The notes beneath the pieces are model-generated. The model was not told where the DNA came from and made no database searches. It saw nothing but the letters and a program-made list of their open reading frames with translations. From Spiroplasma phoeniceum (lineage in GTDB: Bacteria; Bacillota_I; Bacilli_A; Mycoplasmatales; Mycoplasmataceae), in NCBI GenBank assembly GCA_026239495.1, contig CP110830.1:1550001-1614000 (forward strand): a stretch of DNA of 64,000 nt, in the 5' to 3' direction. How positions within the stretch are numbered: the stretch's first letter is position 1; the number at the start of each line of letters is the position of its first letter. Below, piece by piece: positions 9,538-50,768 of the stretch. The position numbers were made by a program, and so were the translations under genes.

Positions 9538-9859
9538 AAAAAAATCAGTTAAATAATATAAGACATATAGTGATTTTTCTGATACACTTAGCCCTAATTT
9601 TTCGTGATATTTTGTTTGATATTCTCCTAAAATTTATTCTGATAATCAACGTAACTTTAATTTTTGTCTAATATAGTTTATAACTTCAAGATTAATGATT
9701 ATTTTCTGGTGGCATTTTAATCGTTTAATCTTGCTTTTTTATGTATAGCCGGTACCTAAAACTTTATTCTAAGCTTTTATTAAGAAAAATAGTATTTTTA
9801 AAAGAAAATGATATAATCATTGTAAACAAGGGAGAAATTATTAAATTAGGGGATTATTG
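9538..9859. promoter_or_regulatory. Intergenic region with the promoter of the RavA-ViaA operon
   Basis: TATAAT at 9812-9817 is the best -10 box, 43 bp before the ATG at 9860, and AGGGGA at 9848-9853 is the ribosome site. No good -35 was found. The left half contains short minus-strand coding-like pieces (RLRWLSE, GEYQTKYHEKLGLSVSEKS) broken by stops, perhaps a gene relic; no function can be given. Confidence 0.5.
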
Positions 9860-10429
9860 ATGGAGAAAGCAAAACAAGATTTTCAAAAAAATGATGTTTG
9901 GTTAACAAGAATGTATTTTACGACACCAATGGAAGCTATTGCTAGAATTATGATTTTAATTGGACAAGCGGTTATGCTAGGAGTAATTATTATTGTATCG
10001 GCTTCTTTAGCAATGATTGCAACTAGTAAATTACCAATTCCTGCCGTTTTTAATAATTTTGGGTTAGCTGATGGTGTTTTTCGTGGCCTTACCATTTTTA
10101 TTGCTCTGTTTGGGATTGTCTTTTCTTTAATATTTGTAGTTCCAACATTAATTGTTCGTAATATTAAACTTTTAAAGGTAACTGGAATTATTTTTAATAC
10201 AGCCGGATGCATCTTTGTTTTACTAATGTTAGGATTAAGCATTGTTGCCTATCTTTATATTCCTGTTCGGCTAAATTTACCAGGGGTAATTATGGCTGGA
10301 CTTTGTATGTTAATGTTATTTTGAGGCAGTTTTTTATTATGATTATCAGCAATTCGTCAGCAGAAACGAATTAACCTTGCTGTTGCTGAAAGTTTAGATT
10401 TTAGTTCTAAATTAAATATAGTTGAATAG
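9860..10429 (+). CDS. Four-helix membrane protein, paralogue 1 of the RavA-ViaA operon
   Basis: 189 residues. After a 25-residue charged N-terminus there are four predicted membrane helices: about 27-53, 74-100, 106-132 and 138-165. It shares two landmarks with the proteins at 10442, 11214 and 14808. One is a Glu-x3-Arg motif entering helix 1 (PMEAIARIMILIGQ). The other is a basic loop after helix 2 (VVPTLIVRNIKLLK). The ATG at 9860 is preferred over TTG 9857 because of AGGGGA upstream. The gap to the next gene is 12 bp. No family name is known to me. The location beside ravA and viaA suggests an envelope partner, but that is inference. Confidence 0.75.
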
Positions 10430-10441
10430 GAAGGTGCTTTA

Positions 10442-11200
10442 ATGAAAAAAACAAAAAATAGTAAAACAATAAATCAAGAACAATTAGCAAAAGTAGTAAA
10501 AAAAATGCATTTTGTTGTTGATAATAGTCCGCCAATTTTAAAAAATTTAGATAAAATTGTTATTGATCACAACGTAAAATCGTTAGGGGAATATGAATTA
10601 AATCGAAAACAACAAACTCGTCCATTACCCCACCAATACAACATTGAAGCAAGTAAGTATTATTTTTCTACTAAAAGCGAAACAATAGCGAGAACTTTAA
10701 TTGTCTTTTCACAATTATTGTTAATTGTAGTTGCTCTAATATATATTCCAAAGTTAGGGCAGGTAGGAGCACAATTTATTTTTTATTTATTATCCAAATT
10801 TAAAACTCCATTTACTGATCAAATTGTAGCAATTGGTCAACCAATTGTAATTGGAATAATTATTTTATTAGCTATTTTATGGTTTACAACATTCTTTTTT
10901 ATAACAATTCCAATTTTAATTACTAAAACATTAAAAACTGTTAATATTTGAATAATTATTGTTAGTATTGTTGGTAATATTAATTGCTTTTCAATTCTTG
11001 GATTAGCTATTTTACAATTTATTTATGCTAAAAATTCAGTTGTTGGATTAAATATTAACCCATTTGTTTTACCTTCAATTGCGATTGTTGCTTTTTGTTG
11101 TTTTATATTGGGGTGCTTATTTTTAAAAAGTGATCGTAAAAAATATCAAACCAAATTAGAAAATGAAATATCAAACCAAATTAGAGCACTAAGAGAGTAA
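10442..11200 (+). CDS. Four-helix membrane protein, paralogue 2 of the RavA-ViaA operon
   Basis: 252 residues. A long polar N-terminal domain (about 75 residues, beginning MKKTKNSKTINQEQ) precedes the shared motif KSETIARTLIVFSQ and helix 1. Helix 2 ends TTFFFITIPILITKTLK, matching the basic loop of paralogue 1. Two more helices follow (NIWIIIVSIVG and LPSIAIVAFCCFILG). The tail is charged and contains a short tandem duplication (KYQTKLENEISNQIR). AGGAAGG precedes the start and the next ATG is 13 bp downstream. Cytoplasmic N- and C-termini are likely from the positive charges. Confidence 0.72.
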
Positions 11201-11213
11201 GGAAAAAACTATT

Positions 11214-11918
11214 ATGTTAACAAAAATTAGTTCAAAACGAGATGAATTAGCACTCCAATGAAATACACGAATTGAAGTTGCAGCACGTTTATTAGTTATT
11301 AGTTTTTCCATTTTAGGAACTTTTATGGGTTATTTTATTATTGCTGGTTGTGCAATGGCTTATAATAATATTAAAAATTTAACAGGTGTTATTTCCCATC
11401 GAACTTATGAATTACATTATATTATTGCTGGTATTGTTGGTTTAATTTGTGCTTGTTTTTTCTTTTGTTTTATTGGCTTGCCATATGTAAGATTAAAAAA
11501 AGCAGCTAGTTTTAAAAGTTGAATTATTATTTCAAGTATTTTTGCAATAATATATTATACAACATGCGCTACCTTGGCAGTAATTTTTATTAATATGTTT
11601 AACACTATGAATAATTATTTTATTGTAGGTTTTACTTTACTTATTATTTGTTTTTTAGTAATTTTTTTATTATATTTTTTATTATGACGTGAAGTAAAAA
11701 AACAATGAATTTTACGAAAAAAATTTGAGTATTTAGCAGATGAAGAACAAATGAAACAAGTAGAAACAAAATTAGCAAATTTAGAATTGCGACGTCAGCG
11801 CCCTGTTGAATTAGAAACAATTAAGTATAATAAAGAAAAGTATATTTTAAATAATTTAAAGGAAAAAAAGAAAAATATTTATGTACAAAAACCTGTTTTA
11901 GAAGAGCAAGAACAATAA
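11214..11918 (+). CDS. Four-helix membrane protein, paralogue 3 of the RavA-ViaA operon
   Basis: 234 residues. The motif TRIEVAARLLVISFS opens helix 1 (about residues 22-48). Helix 2 ends IGLPYVRLKKAASFKSW, again the Pro-then-basic loop. Helices 3 and 4 follow. The C-terminus is a 75-residue coiled-coil-prone, Lys/Glu-rich cytoplasmic tail (EEQMKQVETKLANLELRRQ), longer than in the paralogues and a plausible docking site for cytosolic proteins such as RavA or ViaA. Several TGA Trp codons. The start is chosen as the first ATG after AGGAAAAAAC; the ribosome site is weak. Confidence 0.72.
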
Positions 11919-11974
11919 GCTTTAAAATCATCTAAACAAGAATAATATAATAAATATTATAGGGGACTGTATTA

Positions 11975-14413
11975 ATGAATAAAGAAGATAACAATAATAA
12001 TGTGGTGAAATTAAAAACTCAAACAGTTCGTCGAAAAATTTATCGGAAAGCAAATTTAATTTTTTTTGCTATTATTGCAATAATAGCAATTACTGCTGGG
12101 TTAGGCGGAGTTATTTATTCAATTATTTCTGCTTCTTTTTATCATGATAAAAATCCGTGAGCAAATGCTATTTTGTTAGATGATAAAATTACAAAAAAGG
12201 TTAATTCACAACTGTCAAAAGCATTAGTTGATTCTAATGGGGTTGCAAAACCAGATCATTTAACTAGTTATGTTTGGTTTAATCCTGGTGAAAAAGATGG
12301 AATTGATATTTATGCTAATCTAACTAATATTCAAATTATTCAAGATATTTTTTCAAAAAATAATTGAATTGAAGATAATTTAAGTATTGTTGAAACAATG
12401 CTAAAAGGAACAGGGGCTAGTTTATCAGGAACCAAAGTAATTTATCAAAATAATCTTTTGAATTTAGTTCTGCTACCAAAAATTTTATCTTATCCATATA
12501 ATGATGGTGATGATAAATATGGTTTAGTAACAATTGTCCCGGCAGATTATCAACAAGGACTCTTTGCATATAAAGTTCGTTTTGCTTTGCAATTAATTGC
12601 AACTGATTTTGCTGGTTATTATATTGATTTAAAGAAAACATTTGATTATACATATGATACAACAGAGGGTGCTTTTACAGTTGCTTTAACATTAAGTCAA
12701 CTTTTAAATTTAATTACCAACCAAAAAATTATTAATTTAGTTCAGAAATATCATATTAGATTAGATAGTGACAATGAAGTAATTTTAAATAGTCTTTTAA
12801 GTGAATATTATCCAATTGCAAAACCAGATAATAGTATTCTTATTAATGAAGAAATTGCAAACAAATATGATGTTCCTTTTGCGCCAATTGTTAAAACGCC
12901 GTCGGCAAGTGACTTAATATTAAATATTAAGTATGATTCTAAAAAATTTAGTTCATTGCAGCAATTTGGTGCTAATCTTTTTAATTATCATGATAAAAAT
13001 TATTCAGCAATTGCTAATATTTTTACTAAAATTGGAGTTATAATGCCAACATTTGAAAATGTTAAAAATAGTTATGATTTATATGATCGAAACAGTGAAG
13101 ATACTTTTCTTGCTGATGGAATGATTGACCAACGAGTAAACTTTTATCGAGGATTTATTAAGGAAATGGGGGTTGATTCCGATAATATTACTGATAAGTT
13201 TAATTATGTTACTAATGATAATAGCCATTATGTTTGAGGATCAGAACATCAAATTTTTTATAATGAAGTTAAAATTAAATTTTTAAATATTAATAACAAT
13301 TTATGAAATAATATTTATCGAAGTCCAACTAAAATTTACTATGACCAACAACGCTATACAAATACTTCAATTAATTTACAAGCATTTGATTTATCGGCAA
13401 ATGTTAAAGATGTTATTGAAAAAGTTCAATATGATGATTCTGCAGTAGAAATTGATCGTCGTTTAACAAATCAAAGTGGAATTATTAAAACTAATTTAAA
13501 AGATTATTTATTAAAGCAATTAAATAATCCCTATATTAAAATTCATAATATTGTAAAAGAGATTACTGTTGGTGTTACAAATAATGCTTCTAAAATTGAA
13601 GGAACAGTTTTTGTAAAACAGTCACCTATTAATGGAACTTTGCGTGGGAATTATAATAAATTATATCAAGATAAATTGTTAACTTTACCAAAAATTGACA
13701 TTACAGTACGTTTTTCTTATGATGGCACTAACAGTAACACCTATAATTTATCTTATCAATATGATGTTTCATCTAAAGTAGTTAAAGATTGACGTGGTGT
13801 TGATAAAAATAATCTCAGTGTTTTACAAAGTCATTTTAACTTTTTTGAAAATTATACAACCCTTGATAAAATAACAAGTTTAGAAAACGATTATCGTGAA
13901 GAAATAATTAATGTTGCTAATATATGAGAAAATAATAATCCAATGGGAGCAGAAAATAAAGATAATAATTATCCCGTTGAATTTTCAAATCGAAATTCGT
14001 TTGCAATTAAGTTAAATCAAGTTAATGTTGGACGGAATAATAACAATAATTTACGATTTGGAACCTATAATGCTAGTGTGACAGCAACAAAAGGATCACT
14101 AAATTATCAAGGAACATTCACAACTAATTCAATTTATGTAAAAGCAGCGCCAATTGAGCATCTTACAGCACCATTATTGTTTGCAGATAGTTCATGGACA
14201 CAGCAAAAAGCTTATCGACAAATTAAAACTAGTATTTTAAGTCAAGCTGCAAGATATGGTTTAAATTTAACAGATAGTGATTTTATGATTAGTGGAATTT
14301 CAGAAAATAATGTTGAAAAATTACCAACTGGGAACAAAGCAATTACCGTTACTGCTGTGGGAAAGGATAATGTTGTTACTGGAACAGCATTTGTTGATTT
14401 AATTGTAAATTAA
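11975..14413 (+). CDS. Large single-pass membrane protein with extracellular domains
   Basis: 812 residues. There is a short basic cytoplasmic N-terminus (VRRKIYRK), one transmembrane helix (about residues 28-53, LIFFAIIAIIAITAGLGGVIYSI), then about 760 polar, Asn-rich extracellular residues without Cys. The last about 90 residues resemble the Ig-like repeat of spiralin-type proteins: a helix-rich lead (QIKTSILSQAARYGLNLTDSDF) followed by strands ending GTAFVDLIVN. It sits inside the operon between paralogues 3 and 4. AGGGGA precedes the ATG. The frame continues after the stop (see next entry), so the protein was probably longer. A role as surface adhesin or envelope-stress sensor is only inferred. 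Confidence 0.72.
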
Positions 14414-14716
14414 GTTAATATTAGAAAATATAATAGTGCACTTAAACTAGGCTTTCAAAAAGTAAATGATTCAATTGGTGAAATAATAAACAGTATTTTT
14501 GCACAATTACAACAATTAGTTAATAAAGATAAATATAACATTGTAAATTTCCGTGAATATTTTAATGTTATTATTTTGACTGAAGACAATCGCGAATTAG
14601 ATGCTAATGATGTCTTTTTAGAAGAAGGTAATTATTGATATTATATTAAAGTAACAAGTTCTGGAGCAAAATATTTTGAGGGAACGATATAAAATATTTT
14701 GATTGTTAAAAAATAG
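14414..14716 (+). pseudogene. Former C-terminal domain of the ectodomain protein, cut off by a stop
   Basis: Directly after the TAA at 14411-14413 the same frame stays open for about 90 codons (VNIRKYNSALKLGFQKVND to KYFEGTI) before a second TAA, then NILIVKK and a final TAG. Its layout (helical lead, FREYFNVIILTED, terminal strands) repeats that of the preceding domain. The simplest reading is loss of one or two terminal Ig-like domains by point mutation; suppression of the stop cannot be excluded. Confidence 0.6.
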
Positions 14717-14807
14717 GAAAAAAATAATTTAATTGCCTAAATTTAGGGAAAATGTTAAAATGTTTACACAAATTTAAAATAGGGTTAAATACCAAAGGGG
14801 GGGCAAA

Positions 14808-15476
14808 ATGTTTAAAAATAAGCCAACATATGGAAGTAAATTTCCAGATTTAGAGTTGCTTGATACCGAAGAAGAACGCCTAAAATATGAGGAGGAAGTT
14901 AAAGAATTGTCTAAACAGGAGCAGAAACGTTTTAGTTATTTGTCACCAACTCAGCACAATGATTTTTCACAACGACGAATGTTTTGGGATAGTCCACTTG
15001 AACGAGTAGGGCGAAGTTTTATTATTTTTGGACAGTTAGTAGCAATTGTTTTAGCTTATTTTGTTGGTCAAAAGGCAATTTTAGTTTCTTTAAGTAATTA
15101 TCTTGATCCAAATATTAAAGTTTTTGCTGAGATTTATGTTAAAGACCTTTTAAGTTATGGGTTTTTATTTCTTAGTTTATTATTTAGTTTATTATATTTT
15201 ATTCCGATGGCAGTGGCTCGAACTGCGGGTGCTATTTATGGATGAGGTATTGCTTATATTATGTTAGCAATTTTATATTTTTTATTTGTTGAAATTTTAT
15301 GTGCAATTTTATTGATTCTAGGAAGTATTAAAGGAAATCCAGCTGAACCAATTAATATTTGATTATTAGTTTTTATTGTTTTGGTTCTAACAATTACTTC
15401 TATTTGAATTGTTGGAGCATGCCTATTAATTGTTAAATCAGATGATGTTAAACGAATAATTAATTTAGAAGTTTAG
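14808..15476 (+). CDS. Four-helix membrane protein, paralogue 4 of the RavA-ViaA operon
   Basis: 222 residues. The N-terminal cytoplasmic part is Glu-rich ([22 protein letters not shown]). The motif [15 protein letters not shown] leads into helix 1. Helix 2 ends [17 protein letters not shown], then two further helices. It fits the same family as the proteins at 9860, 10442 and 11214. The GGGGGGG-type ribosome site (14799-14805) is strong. The gap to ravA is 16 bp, so co-transcription with the ATPase is very likely. Confidence 0.74.
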
Positions 15477-15492
15477 GAGAAAAAAGAAAATT

Positions 15493-17031
15493 ATGATACT
15501 TACAGAAAGATTAGAAGAATTGACCAAACAATTACAACAAAATGTTTATGAAAAAGAAGAAATTTTTAATTTATCAATGTTAGCGATGCTAAGTGGTGAA
15601 TCAATTTTTCTTTTAGGAAAACCGGGAATTGCTAAATCGTTAGTTTCACGTCGTTTAAAGCATGCTTTTAAAAATGGCACTATTTTTGAATATTTAATGA
15701 ATCGTTTTTCAACACCAGAAGAAATTTTTGGACCAATTTCAATTGAAGATTTACAAAAAGGAGTATATAAGCGCTTAATTGATAAATATTTACCAACGGC
15801 TGAAATTGTATTTTTAGATGAAATTTGAAAAGCGGGACCATCAATTCAAAATACTTTATTAACAATTATTAATGAAAAGATTTTTCGTAATGCTGGAGTA
15901 GATATAAAAGTGCCAATGAAATTATTAATTTCAGCGTCAAATGAGTTGCCAGCAGAAGGACAAGGTCTTGAAGCGTTATATGACCGTTTTATTATTCGTT
16001 ATATTGCACAAGGGTTAAAAGATGAAGAAAACTTTAATGATATGATTGCTGGAGTAACTGAATTGGATGTAAAAGTTGATGAAGCTTTACAAATTACACA
16101 TGAAGAATATGATACATGACGAAAAGAAATTAATAAGATTAAAATAACACCAGTAACTTTTGATTTTATTTCTCGATTTCGAAAAGCAATGTATATTGCG
16201 ACTGAAGGTGAATCTTATATTTCAGATCGTCGTTGAAAGAAGATTGCTCATTTAATGAAAGCTTCAGCATTTTATAATGGTCGTGATACAGTTGATAAAG
16301 CTGATTGGTTAGTCATTCCATATTGTATTTGAGATGATGAACAACAAGAAGAAACATATAATGCTATTTTTAATGAATTTTATTTAGATGCTTTAACGTA
16401 TGATGTTCGTGAAAAAAAGAATCGTTTAAGCAAAGAATTAGAAGAATTATCCGTTCAGTATGAAGATAGCCAAGAAGTTAATAGTCGCAAAAGTGAATAT
16501 TTGGATGTTTTTGATGGAAAATTACAAGGAACATTTCATCGAATTTTTTGAAAAAATCAACAGAATCCAATTTGTTTTATTCGTGCTGAAGATTTTATTG
16601 ATGCTCGTCATAATAAGACACAACCCACATTAATTGAATTATATTATGGTGAAGATTTAGATAATATGGCTGATGTTTTGCAAACAGAGATTAGTTATGT
16701 TAATGATAGTACTTTTAAAATTATTAAAACAAATGAAGAAATTAAAATTGAAATTAAGAATTCAAAAGTGGATAATAATTCAAAACTTGAAAAAATAATT
16801 TTAGCTGTTGAACGAGAAATTGATAGTTTAACAACTGCTTTTCCGGATGAAAAAGAACGATTATTATCTTTAAATTGTCTCTTTTTTAAAGAACGTTTTA
16901 TTTTGGCAGTTAATAATGCCTTTAGTGATAATAAAATAAATTTTAATGAAAATTGGTTAGAATTAGAACAATTTTCAAATTCAGAGCAAAAAATAAATAA
17001 TAGTAATTTTGAACAATTAACAAAAAATTAA
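15493..17031 (+). CDS. ravA: MoxR-type AAA+ ATPase of the RavA group
   Basis: 512 residues (E. coli RavA is about 500). Walker A is GKPGIAKS at 42-49, with the Ile-Ala-Lys-Ser form typical of RavA. Walker B is IVFLDE (Asp109-Glu110). Sensor-1 is SASNE, and the arginine-finger region is [10 protein letters not shown]. After the AAA+ module (about 1-300) comes a coiled-coil region ([15 protein letters not shown]) and a C-terminal region in the place of the LARA/triple-helical part of RavA. Start at 15493 after AGGAGAAAAAAG. It is 26 bp upstream of the ViaA-like gene, the classic RavA-ViaA pair. Known family role: hexameric chaperone-like ATPase acting with ViaA at the membrane; substrates in Spiroplasma are unknown. 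Confidence 0.88.
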
Positions 17032-17057
17032 ATGATTAAAACAAAGGAGGATTTAAT

Positions 17058-18617
17058 GTGAATCCATATTTAGAGCAAAAAGCGGGAGTTCAACTAGCTA
17101 GTAAGTTAACAGCATTAAAAAATACGGATTTAGTTAATCCAAGTTTTGCTCTGATGAAAACAACGAACCGCTGATTAAGTGAAATGTTTGACCAAACTGT
17201 TAATAATTTTTATGATCATCAAATTGAAAATGAAATTATGAAAATTAAGTTAGATTCAAATATCGAAAAAGAAATTTATTTATTTCATTGGATTAAAGTT
17301 AATGGTTATTATGGTTTAAAAAAGAATTATGCTTCAACACAAGATTTTTTGTTTAAAGTTAATTCGCCATTTTATGATCGACTAAATTATTATCGTTATG
17401 AATTTAATAAAAAACAAAATAATAATCCAAATATGTTATTTCGTGATTTTATTGGAATTTGAGAATCCATTTTAATTAAAAGAATTAATGATTATCGTTT
17501 TGCAAAAATTGAAGAATTAAGAACAAAGTTTATGCAAGATTTATATAATAAAGTGGAAATTTATAATAAAGCTAATAGTTTATTAAAAACAGTATGAAAC
17601 TTTTTTGGCAAAATATGAAATCCATCAGAACTAAAAAAAGGTGTTAATATGTCAGTCATTGATAAATTTGCAAAATTTTTGGAAACTAATCCGGCAATTA
17701 TGGAAATTGCAACATTATTAGGGCGTTTTCAAGGTAAAAGTAATTTAATTGAACAACGAATTTTAGAAGAAATTGTAATGGATTATGAGTGAAAACCAAT
17801 TGGCTCTTCACCAGAAGAAATTATTGGAGCAACTGAATCTAAAGATTTAGAACATATGTTTCCCGCCGAATTAGTTTTATTAAAAGATCCAGTTTTAAAA
17901 TATATTTTTTATAAAAAATATATTGAGGACAAATTAACAACATTTGAATTTTTATCACAAGATAAAGTTCCCAAAGAACAAATTAAATTACGAACAATTG
18001 AAACATATGTTCCTGAAGAAAAAGGACCAATCATTTTATCAATTGATACCTCTTATTCAATGCGAGGTAGTCCCGAACAAATTGCTAAAGCTATTGCTTT
18101 AGCAATTGCAAAAATTGCTTTAGCAGAGCATCGCCCTTGCTACATGATTAATTTTTCTAAAAGTTTAGATGTTTATAATTTATCTTCTTTAAAAGATTCA
18201 CTACCAAAATTAATTGAATTTTTGTCAAAAAGTTTTGCTGGGGACACAGATGTTGAGCCAGCATTAGAACATACCTTAACAGTAATGGATAGTAATGAAT
18301 ATTTTAATGCTGATTTGTTATTAATTAGTGATTTTTTAACTTCTGATTTATCACTTGATTTAATAACAAAGATAAATTTATTAAAACAGCGTCGGAATCG
18401 CTTTCATGCTATTGTTATTGGGAAAATGGGTGCAGAAAATGTAGAAATAATTTTTAATAATGCTTGAATTTATGACCCACGTGATCCATTTGCTTCAGAA
18501 CGAATAATTGCTTCGTTAACAGGGCAAATTGTAAAGAAATATGATAAAGTTCCTAATGCAAAAGCAATTTTAGGACAAATGAGAACTGCAAAGGAGATTA
18601 GCAAAAATGTTAAGTAA
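17058..18617 (+). CDS. viaA: VWA-domain protein of the ViaA group
   Basis: 519 residues from GTG 17058, which follows AAAGGAGG. The nearby ATG at 17056 is out of frame. The N-terminal about 310 residues are helical (ViaA-like). The C-terminal VWA domain has a complete MIDAS: DTSYS (Asp330, Ser332, Ser334), a Thr in FAGDTDVEP, and LLISDF. Length and order match E. coli ViaA (483 residues), the partner that stimulates RavA and binds phospholipid. The adjacent membrane paralogues in this operon are not part of the E. coli arrangement and make the locus unusual. Several TGA Trp codons. It appears intact. Confidence 0.86.
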
Positions 18618-47604: not shown

Positions 47605-47770
47605 AAATTTTGCATTTTTTTATTTTTTGTGTATAATATTATTTTTTATTTTAATAATAAAAACAGTAAATGTATGATATAATTACTTTGTAATAAAACG
47701 GGTATAAAAATAGCTAAAATAAATTTAATAAAACATATTAAGTTTTTTTTGAATGGGGTAATCAGAAACA

Positions 47771-50728
47771 ATGAAAAAAATTAGAGTATTAACGTTAGAA
47801 AAAAAAGGAATTTTAAAAAAATTCTTATATCAAAATGAAGAAGTTAAATCAGGTGATAAAATTGCTTTAATTGAAACTGAAAATGGTGAATCTATTATTA
47901 CATGCCCAATGGATGGAATTATTGTTAAGCCAATTAAAGAAGGCGCTAAAATTAAACCCAATGCTGTTATTGCTAGTTTGCTAACAACTGAAGATGAAAT
48001 TGAAAAGTATTATTTTAAACTTCTTGAAGATAACGAACTTACTCGTTTAAATAAAAAAGGGGTAAAATTTTCGATAACAAAAAATGGTCAATTTGGAAGA
48101 AAATGAAATGATGTTGAAAAAGATGATTATTCAGGAATTAGTATTGGGAACGAAAATACTTTACATCCAACTTTTACGCCGCCTTTATTGAATCAGCAAC
48201 AAGTTTACAATAATGAAAACACTATTAATTCAAGGGCTGTATTAATTAATGAACAACGGCCATATGATACTTCGATATTATCACAAAATTTTAACCAAAA
48301 TGGTGGAACTCCCTTTTCTAAAGAGAATACTATTAATAATAGTTCTTATTTTTCAACAAATATTGAACAAAATCAATCTATTAATTTTCAGCAACAAAAA
48401 AATTCATCATCACAAAAGCAACTTTTTGAACAACCCACTAAAATAACACAAGAAGAACAGAAACGATGGGATGAGACAGCATTATCTTTTGGTCCTAATA
48501 AAACACGAAGATTATCATTTAAAAATTTAAAAATTAATGATAATGATATTATTAATAATCGAGAAAAAATTCCTTCAATTGATACAATTAAAAACCCAAT
48601 GAATAAAGAAATAAAAAGTGAGGCGAAGACAACAATGGTTAATATTCCTGATTTGAATAGTAATATGTTTCAAGAAGGTAACTTTGAATCACAAACAAAT
48701 AGTTTCAATCAACCGCCTTCTATTCCCAACCAAAATATTATAACGAATTCTATTCCAATTGGACAAACAAAATTAACAGAAGAAAATCAAGAAAAAAAAT
48801 ATGCAAAATATTTAGTTAATACAATAAAGCGTCAAGATGAAGCACCAATTAATGCAGCAGAATTTTTTGGTGGTCAAAATGAAAATACTAGTTTTCGTAA
48901 TCTTGTAAATCAACGTCGTGAGCAATTACATAATAATAATGATTTTCATGATTTATCATTAGAAAGTGATAATTCCAAAAATTCAATGGATTTTTTAGAT
49001 GAAGATGGACGCCCTAAAATTTTACGTAATATTGTCCAAGGAAGAATGAATGATTTAATTAAAAGAAATTTATCATCAGAATTACAATCTGGGTATAGTA
49101 GCTCTGCTTCTAATTATAATGACAATGTTAATACTTTTAAAACAAATGACAAAAAATTATCTTATGAGTCTTATATTTCTGCTGATGGTTACATAATTGA
49201 TCCAAATGAGTCAAATGAAGCGAAAGAAAAAAAACAAGGACATTTTTCTCCATTAAAATCTTATCGTGATTGTTTATATGAAAAATTAAATGATAGTGGG
49301 CAACGAGAAAAAATTTTAAAAACAAGAAATCAACGAGAGTTAATTAAGAAAAGAATGGAACAAATTGCAAAAGGAAATGTTGAAGTTGATTCTGTTTTAG
49401 GAGGAATTAGTAATTATCAGCCTCCTTCTTTTGGGGAAGTTGAATCACAATATAAAATATTAGATAATGAATATTATTATAATAATTCGCAGCAGAAAAA
49501 AACAAATTATGATATAGTTAAACCATCTTTATCATATGAAAAAAAACAATCATCTAAGCAACTAACTCAACTTGAGAACAGTGATGAAAGTAACTGTAGT
49601 TTAAAAGGTAAAATTGATAATAATGTAATGATTGAATTGGCAATTTTAAAAGAACGTTTAGCTAATCAAGAACAAAATAATCGTCAAAATGAATTATTAC
49701 GAGAAATTCAAATTTTACGTCAAGTAAATAATAATAATACAAATGGAACAAACATTGAAAAAATTATGCAATATATGTTAATGCAGCAAATGTTAAAAAC
49801 AATGAATGAGTCAGATCCTGTTTTAAAAGAGATGTTAAAAGAATTTAAATTTAATAATAAACAAGGGCCTGAATTAAAAACTGAACATAATTGTGAAACA
49901 CATAATTTACAAGTTAAAAAATTTAATTCCACAGAAACTACAATTCCTAATACTTATGGAAACTTGGTACAACCATTAAATAACAATTTAAATATTATTA
50001 ATACTAATAGTCAGGTTGAGCCACAGGGATTAGAAACAAGAGAAGAAATTAAATCAACAAGATATCCTGCTATTCAATCAATGATTATGTCTCAAGCACA
50101 TGTACCACCATTAACAATTAATACTGAAATTGATATGTCGGCAATTATTGATCAACAACGAAAATTAAAAAATGCTAATGCTGAGCATGGTGTTCGATTT
50201 TCGACAATGAGTTTTTTAGTAAAAGCAGTTTCGTTAGCTTTAAGTGAATATCCAAAATTAAATTCATATTATGATTGAAAAAAAAATCAAATTGTAATTA
50301 AAAATTCACAACACATTGGATTAGCAACAGAAACTAGTGAGGGATTGGTTATTCCAGTTATTAAATTTGCTGAGCGAATGAGTTTAAAACAAATTGCAAT
50401 TAACATTCAAGAAACAATTGAACGTTTGCGTCAGGGTGAATTATATGATTATGAATTAAAAGGAAGTACTATTACTATTGCCAACTATGGAATGGTTGGA
50501 GCAGTTAATGCAACACCAACAATTTTTTATCCTAATTCAGCAGTAATTGGTGTTGGCCGTATTGTTCGTAAACCAATTGTCATAAAAGGCGATAAACTAG
50601 TAATTCGTTCAATAATGAGTCTTGCTTTAACAATTGATCAACGAATTATTGATGCTGCAGAAGCAGGGATTTTCTTAACACGATTAAAGGAAATTTTAGA
50701 ATCACCAGAATTAATTACCTTGTCATAA
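47771..50728 (+). CDS. 985-residue protein with degenerate lipoyl domain and degenerate E2 acyltransferase domain
   Basis: Residues 1-75 form a lipoyl/biotinyl-type fold (IRVLTLEKKGILKKFLYQ, DKIALIETENGESIITCPMDGIIVKPIKEG). The lysine of the usual ETDKA turn is Asn, so no lipoate can be attached. Residues about 130-770 are low-complexity and Asn/Gln/Ser-rich, with an Arg/Glu coiled coil (LAILKERLANQEQNNRQNELLREIQIL). Residues about 775-985 match the 2-oxoacid dehydrogenase E2 core (TEIDMSAIIDQQRKL, IGLATETSEGLVIPVI, STITIANYGMVGAVNATP, AVIGVGRI). The catalytic DHRxxDG has become DQRIIDA, losing His and Gly. No peripheral-subunit-binding domain seen. The frame is fully open, so it is maintained. 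Probably a scaffold or structural pseudoenzyme. TATAAT boxes at 47632 and 47678. Confidence 0.8.
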
Positions 50729-50768
50729 AAAAATCTTATTAATTTTTAATTAATAAGATTTTTTAATT
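50729..50768. terminator. Bidirectional terminator between the E2-like gene and yigZ relic
   Basis: AAATCTTATTAAT-loop-ATTAATAAGATTT, with A and T runs on both sides, placed between convergent genes. Confidence 0.85.

What the first reader, a model, noticed from the sequence alone, without database searches (positions are those of the whole stretch)
47771..50728. Giant E2-like pseudoenzyme with an Asn/Gln-rich 640-residue insert
The ends look like a 2-oxoacid dehydrogenase E2 (lipoyl domain and acyltransferase core). But the lipoyl lysine is Asn, the catalytic His of DHRxxDG is Gln and its Gly is Ala. The insert is low complexity with a coiled coil. The frame is open over 2958 bp, in contrast with the many broken genes around it, so selection keeps it. 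E2 cores form 24- or 60-subunit cages; a dead E2 with long disordered arms could be a cytoplasmic scaffold or condensate former.
Basis: partly seen in the sequence, partly recalled or inferred. Interest (0 to 1): 0.78.

Follow-up and report, generated by a model that had tools for sequence, protein, structure and literature searches.

The report
Dead E2 enzyme kept with MreB
Helical wall-less bacteria of the Spiroplasma group carry a very large, apparently dead relative of a metabolic enzyme core, kept by strong selection even where the matching metabolic pathway has been deleted and found almost exactly where the actin-like shape and swimming genes are found, so it is probably a structural part rather than an enzyme.

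Summary
With TGA read as Trp (two TGA codons), 47771-50728 (+) is one 985-residue frame: a degenerate lipoyl-like domain, about 658 residues of Asn/Gln-rich arm, and a nearly gap-free E2 acyltransferase core. The lipoyl Lys is Asn, DHRxxDG is DQRIIDA, and no subunit-binding domain is detectable. It is not a private oddity: a family with the same losses occurs in 42 of 198 sampled genomes of the order. Its core is under strong purifying selection (dN/dS mostly 0.02-0.16), like the catalytic pdhC core. In this genome and close relatives the real pyruvate dehydrogenase operon has decayed in different ways, yet this gene stays intact. Conversely, close genera that kept pdhC but lost the multi-MreB/fibril cytoskeleton lack it. 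Giant E2 and strong MreB coincide in 41 genomes, with 1 and 2 exceptions. Best reading: a structural pseudoenzyme tied to the MreB-based helical cytoskeleton. Assembly, binding and location are inferred. A place in the tip 'dumbbell', whose proteins are unknown, is speculation; the published detergent-shell protein list names no such protein. AlphaFold models were too poor to use. The papers searched do not describe this family.

The parts
47771..50728 (+). giant E2-like gene, 985 aa under code 4 (TGA=Trp at 48104-48106 and 50276-50278)
47771..48046 (+). lipoyl-like domain, residues 1-92; lipoyl Lys replaced by Asn38 (codon 47882-47884)
   Evidence: sub-threshold Biotin_lipoyl match at 10-69; alignment of orthologues
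48047..48790 (+). variable Asn/Gln-rich arm, residues 93-340
   Evidence: N+Q 25%; residues 136-300 not conserved in the family
48791..49078 (+). conserved motif block, residues 341-436 (FRxLVxxR...LDExGRPxxxRNIIxxRM), predicted helical
   Evidence: kept in all 27 orthologues including those without the lipoyl-like domain
49079..49603 (+). second arm section, residues 437-611, with a conserved predicted-helical block at about 496-535
49604..50020 (+). Gln/Asn-rich predicted helices, possible coiled coil, residues 612-750 (MMQYMLMQQML)
50021..50725 (+). E2 acyltransferase core, residues 751-985
   Evidence: PF00198 E=4.4e-66; aligns to 1b5s residues 9-241 almost without gaps
50636..50656 (+). 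former active-site motif, DQRIIDA in place of DHRxxDG
47609..47637 (+). promoter-like site TTTGCA-17-TATAAT upstream of the gene
   Evidence: consensus match only; such matches are common here by chance
50725..50767 (+). 20-nt inverted repeat at the stop codon, possible AT-rich terminator
   Evidence: 95% complementary arms, 3-nt loop

Best explanation
It is a structural pseudoenzyme: an ancient paralogue of the pyruvate dehydrogenase E2 that lost the lipoyl attachment site, the catalytic His and the domain that binds E1 and E3, and carries a long flexible arm with conserved, probably helical recognition motifs. Most likely the C-terminal core still assembles into trimers (perhaps cages) and so displays many arms, and the motifs in the arms bind parts of the MreB-based helical cytoskeleton, organising or anchoring it. 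Shown here by sequence: homology, loss of catalytic features across the family, strong selection on the core, independence from pyruvate dehydrogenase, co-occurrence with MreB. Inferred: assembly, binding to the cytoskeleton, location in the cell.
For: Catalytic and lipoyl residues are lost across the family; no subunit-binding domain in the four giants scanned, against E=6e-14 in the pdhC control. Core dN/dS 0.02-0.16, overlapping catalytic pdhC (0.02-0.07). The pdh operon decayed differently in G012, G001, G006 and this genome while the giant stayed intact. Genera g2, g3, g5 and g9 keep pdhC but lack giant, strong MreB set and full-length fibril. Giant and strong MreB coincide in 41 of 198 genomes, with 1 and 2 exceptions, and G050 lost both. 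In genus g10 giant and fibril are both strongly diverged while MreB scores are not. Motif blocks in the arm are conserved although the arm around them is not.
Against: The co-occurrence is mostly one clade pattern with few independent losses, so other lineage-specific traits would fit as well. G044 keeps an intact giant although the MreB genes read there carry stops; one MreB gene is truncated in this genome. No protein annotated as E2, or of about 1000 residues, is among the 16 identified in the Triton-insoluble shell of S. eriocheiris (PMC5289999). The gene is not beside mreB or fibril. Models were too poor to test assembly.
Confidence: 0.5

Rival explanations
1. A structural or regulatory subunit of the pyruvate dehydrogenase complex, like E3BP (protein X): a dead E2 that sits in the E2 cage and recruits or regulates E1 and E3.
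For: E2 homology; pdhC is present in most relatives; E3BP is a known E2-fold subunit (it is among the PDB matches).
Against: No subunit-binding domain; kept intact where the pdh operon is lost; missing from genera that kept pdhC.
Confidence: 0.06
2. A structural pseudoenzyme with a role unrelated to the cytoskeleton, for example a scaffold for metabolic enzymes, RNA or membrane proteins, or a condensate former; its co-occurrence with MreB only reflects shared descent.
For: The phyletic pattern has few independent losses; it persists in G044 with damaged MreB genes; low-complexity Asn/Gln-rich arm.
Against: Giant lost or broken together with MreB in G050 and G065, and absent from genera g2, g3, g5 and g9; joint divergence with fibril in g10.
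Confidence: 0.33
3. An active acyltransferase with an altered active site that uses a lipoyl domain or thioester from another protein.
For: Strong constraint on the whole core; replacing the His does not always abolish activity in E. coli E2o (H375W 59%, H375A 2%, H375N 0.5%; PMC5986005).
Against: Lipoyl Lys and subunit-binding domain are lost, the motif Gly is replaced, there is no E1 alpha or canonical E2 in this genome, and the lipoate-ligase gene of the operon is gone or broken in some carriers.
Confidence: 0.08
4. A decaying pseudogene that happens to be open.
For: It lies among many broken genes, and the arms show raised dN/dS, 0.4-0.9, in several comparisons with the closest relatives.
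Against: Open in all 27 genomes whose gene was read in full, core dN/dS 0.06-0.16 in the closest comparisons, and simulated neutral frames do not stay open.
Confidence: 0.01

Closest known systems
Dihydrolipoamide acyltransferase E2 of pyruvate dehydrogenase (PF00198; pdhC)
   Same: Core fold by sequence, nearly gap-free alignment to the E2p core 1b5s; order of lipoyl-like domain, linker and core
   Different: No lipoyl Lys, no catalytic His, no subunit-binding domain, linker of about 658 residues, kept without E1 and canonical E2
E3BP / protein X (catalytically inactive E2 paralogue of mitochondrial PDH)
   Same: Dead E2-fold paralogue beside an active E2 in many relatives
   Different: E3BP keeps a lipoyl domain and an E3-binding domain and works inside PDH (own knowledge); here both features are lost and the protein persists without PDH
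Spiroplasma fibril protein
   Same: Housekeeping enzyme fold (nucleosidase, PMC9710875) turned into a cytoskeletal protein; nearly the same distribution
   Different: Unrelated fold; fibril is absent from the f9 genomes that have the giant E2
Second E2-like family of the genus (named E2L2 here; L060:5210-6970)
   Same: E2 core without the DHR motif (YNE or YDE), weak lipoyl-like N-terminus, long insert
   Different: Separate clade (100/100), beside the pdh operon, constraint relaxed in the PDH-less group (core dN/dS about 0.6)

Membership tests
2-oxoacid dehydrogenase E2 (working enzyme) | acyltransferase core homologous to E2 | tested here: met
   PF00198 E=4.4e-66; 1b5s alignment
2-oxoacid dehydrogenase E2 (working enzyme) | lipoyl domain with modifiable Lys | tested here: not met
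   Asn38; Lys absent in all orthologues with the domain
2-oxoacid dehydrogenase E2 (working enzyme) | peripheral subunit-binding domain | tested here: not met
   no match in four giants; pdhC control E=6e-14
2-oxoacid dehydrogenase E2 (working enzyme) | catalytic His of DHRxxxDG | tested here: not met
   DQR in 26 of 27 orthologues, DRR in one
2-oxoacid dehydrogenase E2 (working enzyme) | E1 partner genes in the genome | tested here: not met
   no E1 alpha above cut-off in this genome; pdh operon gone from its place
2-oxoacid dehydrogenase E2 (working enzyme) | trimer or cage assembly | not testable with these tools
   only poor monomer models
E3BP / protein X | dead E2 core | tested here: met
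E3BP / protein X | E3-binding domain and association with PDH | tested here: not met
   domain absent; persists without PDH
Spiroplasma MreB/fibril cytoskeleton component | occurs where the MreB set occurs | tested here: met
   41 genomes with both, 1 and 2 exceptions; not corrected for shared ancestry
Spiroplasma MreB/fibril cytoskeleton component | found in the detergent-insoluble shell | tested here: inconclusive
   none of the 16 proteins listed in PMC5289999 is annotated E2 or is about 1000 aa; band-excision method
Spiroplasma MreB/fibril cytoskeleton component | binds MreB or fibril; sits on ribbon or tip | not testable with these tools
   needs experiment

The most novel reading that the evidence does not exclude
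The giant E2 is a core protein of the tip 'dumbbell', or of the anchor of the MreB/fibril ribbon: a metabolic cage turned into a cytoskeletal hub that sets polarity and starts the kinks of swimming.
Probability: 0.15. Interest if true: 0.88.

Novelty: new variant of a known kind. Interest (0 to 1): 0.62.

Why it matters
It is a clear case of a metabolic enzyme core apparently kept for structure: active site, swinging-arm site and partner-binding domain are gone, yet the core is guarded about as strictly as in the working enzyme. It also offers a testable candidate for the unknown proteins that give Spiroplasma its cell pole: papers that rebuilt MreB/fibril systems in other cells note that the tapered pole or dumbbell was absent there (PMC9710875, PMC9663586).

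Tried and rejected
AlphaFold of the full protein and of the core: only four sequences could be used as alignment; mean pLDDT 31.6 and 36.4, so no fold search was run. Profile search of the PDB: only the core matched, nothing for the arm. Gene neighbourhood: no mreB, fibril or division genes seen beside it; in several other genera a protein of unknown family (420-476 aa, no Pfam or NCBIfam match) follows the gene. Plasmid search: no record covers most of the query, only E2-core matches. A search of 296 genomes of the class found the family only in genera of the window's own family. An E3BP-like role, an active enzyme and a pseudogene were considered and set aside as stated under rivals.

Full report
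What is there. The window is from a Spiroplasma-type genome (2.18 Mb, one contig; TGA read as Trp). S. phoeniceum P40 is a close relative: its chromosome carries the gene at 94% identity and its contig length equals that of genome G006. Under table 11 the region splits into three ORFs; under table 4 it is one 985-aa frame with two TGA codons. The C-terminal 235 residues are an E2 acyltransferase core (PF00198, E=4.4e-66) that aligns almost without gaps to the E2p core 1b5s. The N-terminal 92 residues are a degenerate lipoyl-like domain. Between them lie about 658 residues rich in Asn and Gln.

The substitutions are real and shared. In 27 orthologues from eight genera in two families the motif reads DQR (DRR in G022), where the canonical pdhC proteins read DHR or DHK; the Gly of the motif is Ala or another residue. 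The lipoyl Lys is missing in every orthologue that still has the domain; two (G022, G029) have lost the domain. No subunit-binding domain is detectable in four giants scanned, while the pdhC control gives E=6e-14. Loss of the His alone would not prove inactivity: in E. coli E2o the change to Trp keeps 59% and to Asn 0.5% of complex activity (PMC5986005). Together with the missing Lys, the missing docking domain and the missing E1 alpha, the usual reaction is very unlikely here.

It is an old paralogue. A maximum-likelihood tree of the cores gives three groups, each on one side of a branch: giants (support 99/97), canonical pdhC (95/91) and a second degenerate E2 family, called E2L2 here (100/100). 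The distant f9 genomes have both a giant and a pdhC, so the split looks older than the divergence of these families; long branches make the details unsure.

Selection. Core dN/dS is 0.06-0.16 between this gene and those of six close relatives and 0.02-0.10 in the other pairs with usable divergence, overlapping the values for the catalytic pdhC core in informative pairs (0.02-0.07). The arms are looser: 0.1-0.5 in most comparisons, and up to or above 0.9 for short sections among the closest relatives, where counts are small. A neutral frame at dS 0.06 would carry about 11 stops and was open in none of 500 simulations. Inside the arm, blocks at about 373-430 and 496-535 are conserved while 136-300 is not, as expected for binding motifs on a flexible tether.

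Independence from pyruvate dehydrogenase. In G011 the order is sugar mutase, E2L2, OB-fold protein, NADH oxidase, lipoate ligase, pdhA, pdhB, pdhC, pdhD (names other than E2 by my reading). In G012 only parts of pdhB, pdhC and pdhD remain, in pieces. In G001 the ligase and pdhD are broken and pdhA-C were not found. In G006 pdhA matches only to residue 216 of 371. In this genome nothing of the stretch beyond E2L2 and its OB-fold neighbour was found. Whole-genome searches agree: two E2 cores, both lacking DHR, and no E1 alpha above cut-off in G000. The giant is intact in all of these. E2L2 by contrast shows weaker constraint among these genomes (core dN/dS about 0.6, against about 0.2 when G000 is compared with G003 and G013) and is truncated in G008.

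Link with the cytoskeleton. In 60 relatives the giant is found where several strong MreB genes are found. Full-length fibril is found in the same genomes except the f9 group (the fibril query was recalled from memory and is validated by full-length matches of up to 98% identity). Genera g2, g3, g5 and g9 have pdhC but lack the giant, the strong MreB set and full-length fibril. In 198 genomes of the order, giants separate cleanly by score from pdhC (289 bits or more against 216 or less). Giant and strong MreB coincide in 41; the exceptions are G065 (broken giant, no MreB), G045 (one MreB) and G086 (75% complete). The Fisher p-values (7e-39; 1.6e-6 by genus) ignore shared ancestry and should not be read as independent evidence. 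G050 lost both. In genus g10 the giant and fibril are strongly diverged while MreB scores are normal. Against the link: G044 keeps an intact giant although the MreB genes read there carry stops, one MreB gene is truncated in this genome, and none of the 16 proteins named in the Triton-insoluble shell of S. eriocheiris is annotated E2 or is of this size (PMC5289999).

How it probably works. E2 cores build trimers and cages and carry long arms (established for this family, own knowledge). Here the arm lacks the lipoate site but has conserved, probably helical motifs. The simplest reading is a multivalent scaffold whose arms hold other proteins; the phyletic evidence points to the MreB-based helical cytoskeleton as partner. 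The proteins of the tapered pole and dumbbell are described as unknown (PMC9710875), which makes this a candidate worth testing, not an identification. The papers searched hold no description of this family; most subscription journals are not in that library.

Verdict. Interest 0.62.

Noticed in passing
L060:5210-6970:+ (own genome) and L061:4262-6517:+: A second degenerate E2 (E2L2, 582-762 aa; YNE or YDE for DHR) lies beside the pdh operon in relatives; by eye it keeps a Lys at the lipoyl position (TQNKV). Its constraint is relaxed in the PDH-less group and it is truncated in G008.
   Followed up: partly
L069, L071, L072, L091: The pyruvate dehydrogenase operon is decaying by different mutations in closely related genomes of this genus.
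   Followed up: partly
own genome C1:1789142-1789717 (L090): One of the five MreB genes of this genome matches only over part of the family and has a 213-aa open frame; the other four are full length.
   Followed up: partly
L087, L088 (G044), L086 (G065): In f9 genomes MreB genes are broken in G044 although the giant E2 is intact; in G065 the giant is broken and no MreB gene was found.
   Followed up: partly
L045:4230-5492:-, L040:3586-4932:-, L046:2617-4047:-: In several other genera a protein of 420-476 aa without any Pfam or NCBIfam match follows the giant E2 gene, itself followed by a small membrane protein and a Fur-like gene by eye.
   Followed up: no
window 22756-44900: Phage-like gene block present twice, partly inverted and broken, with transposase copies around it (by reading the ORF list).
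   Followed up: no
window 9857-18617: Run of open genes: several small multi-span membrane proteins, an 812-aa protein, a MoxR-like ATPase and a VWA-like protein (by eye), in a region with many broken genes.
   Followed up: no
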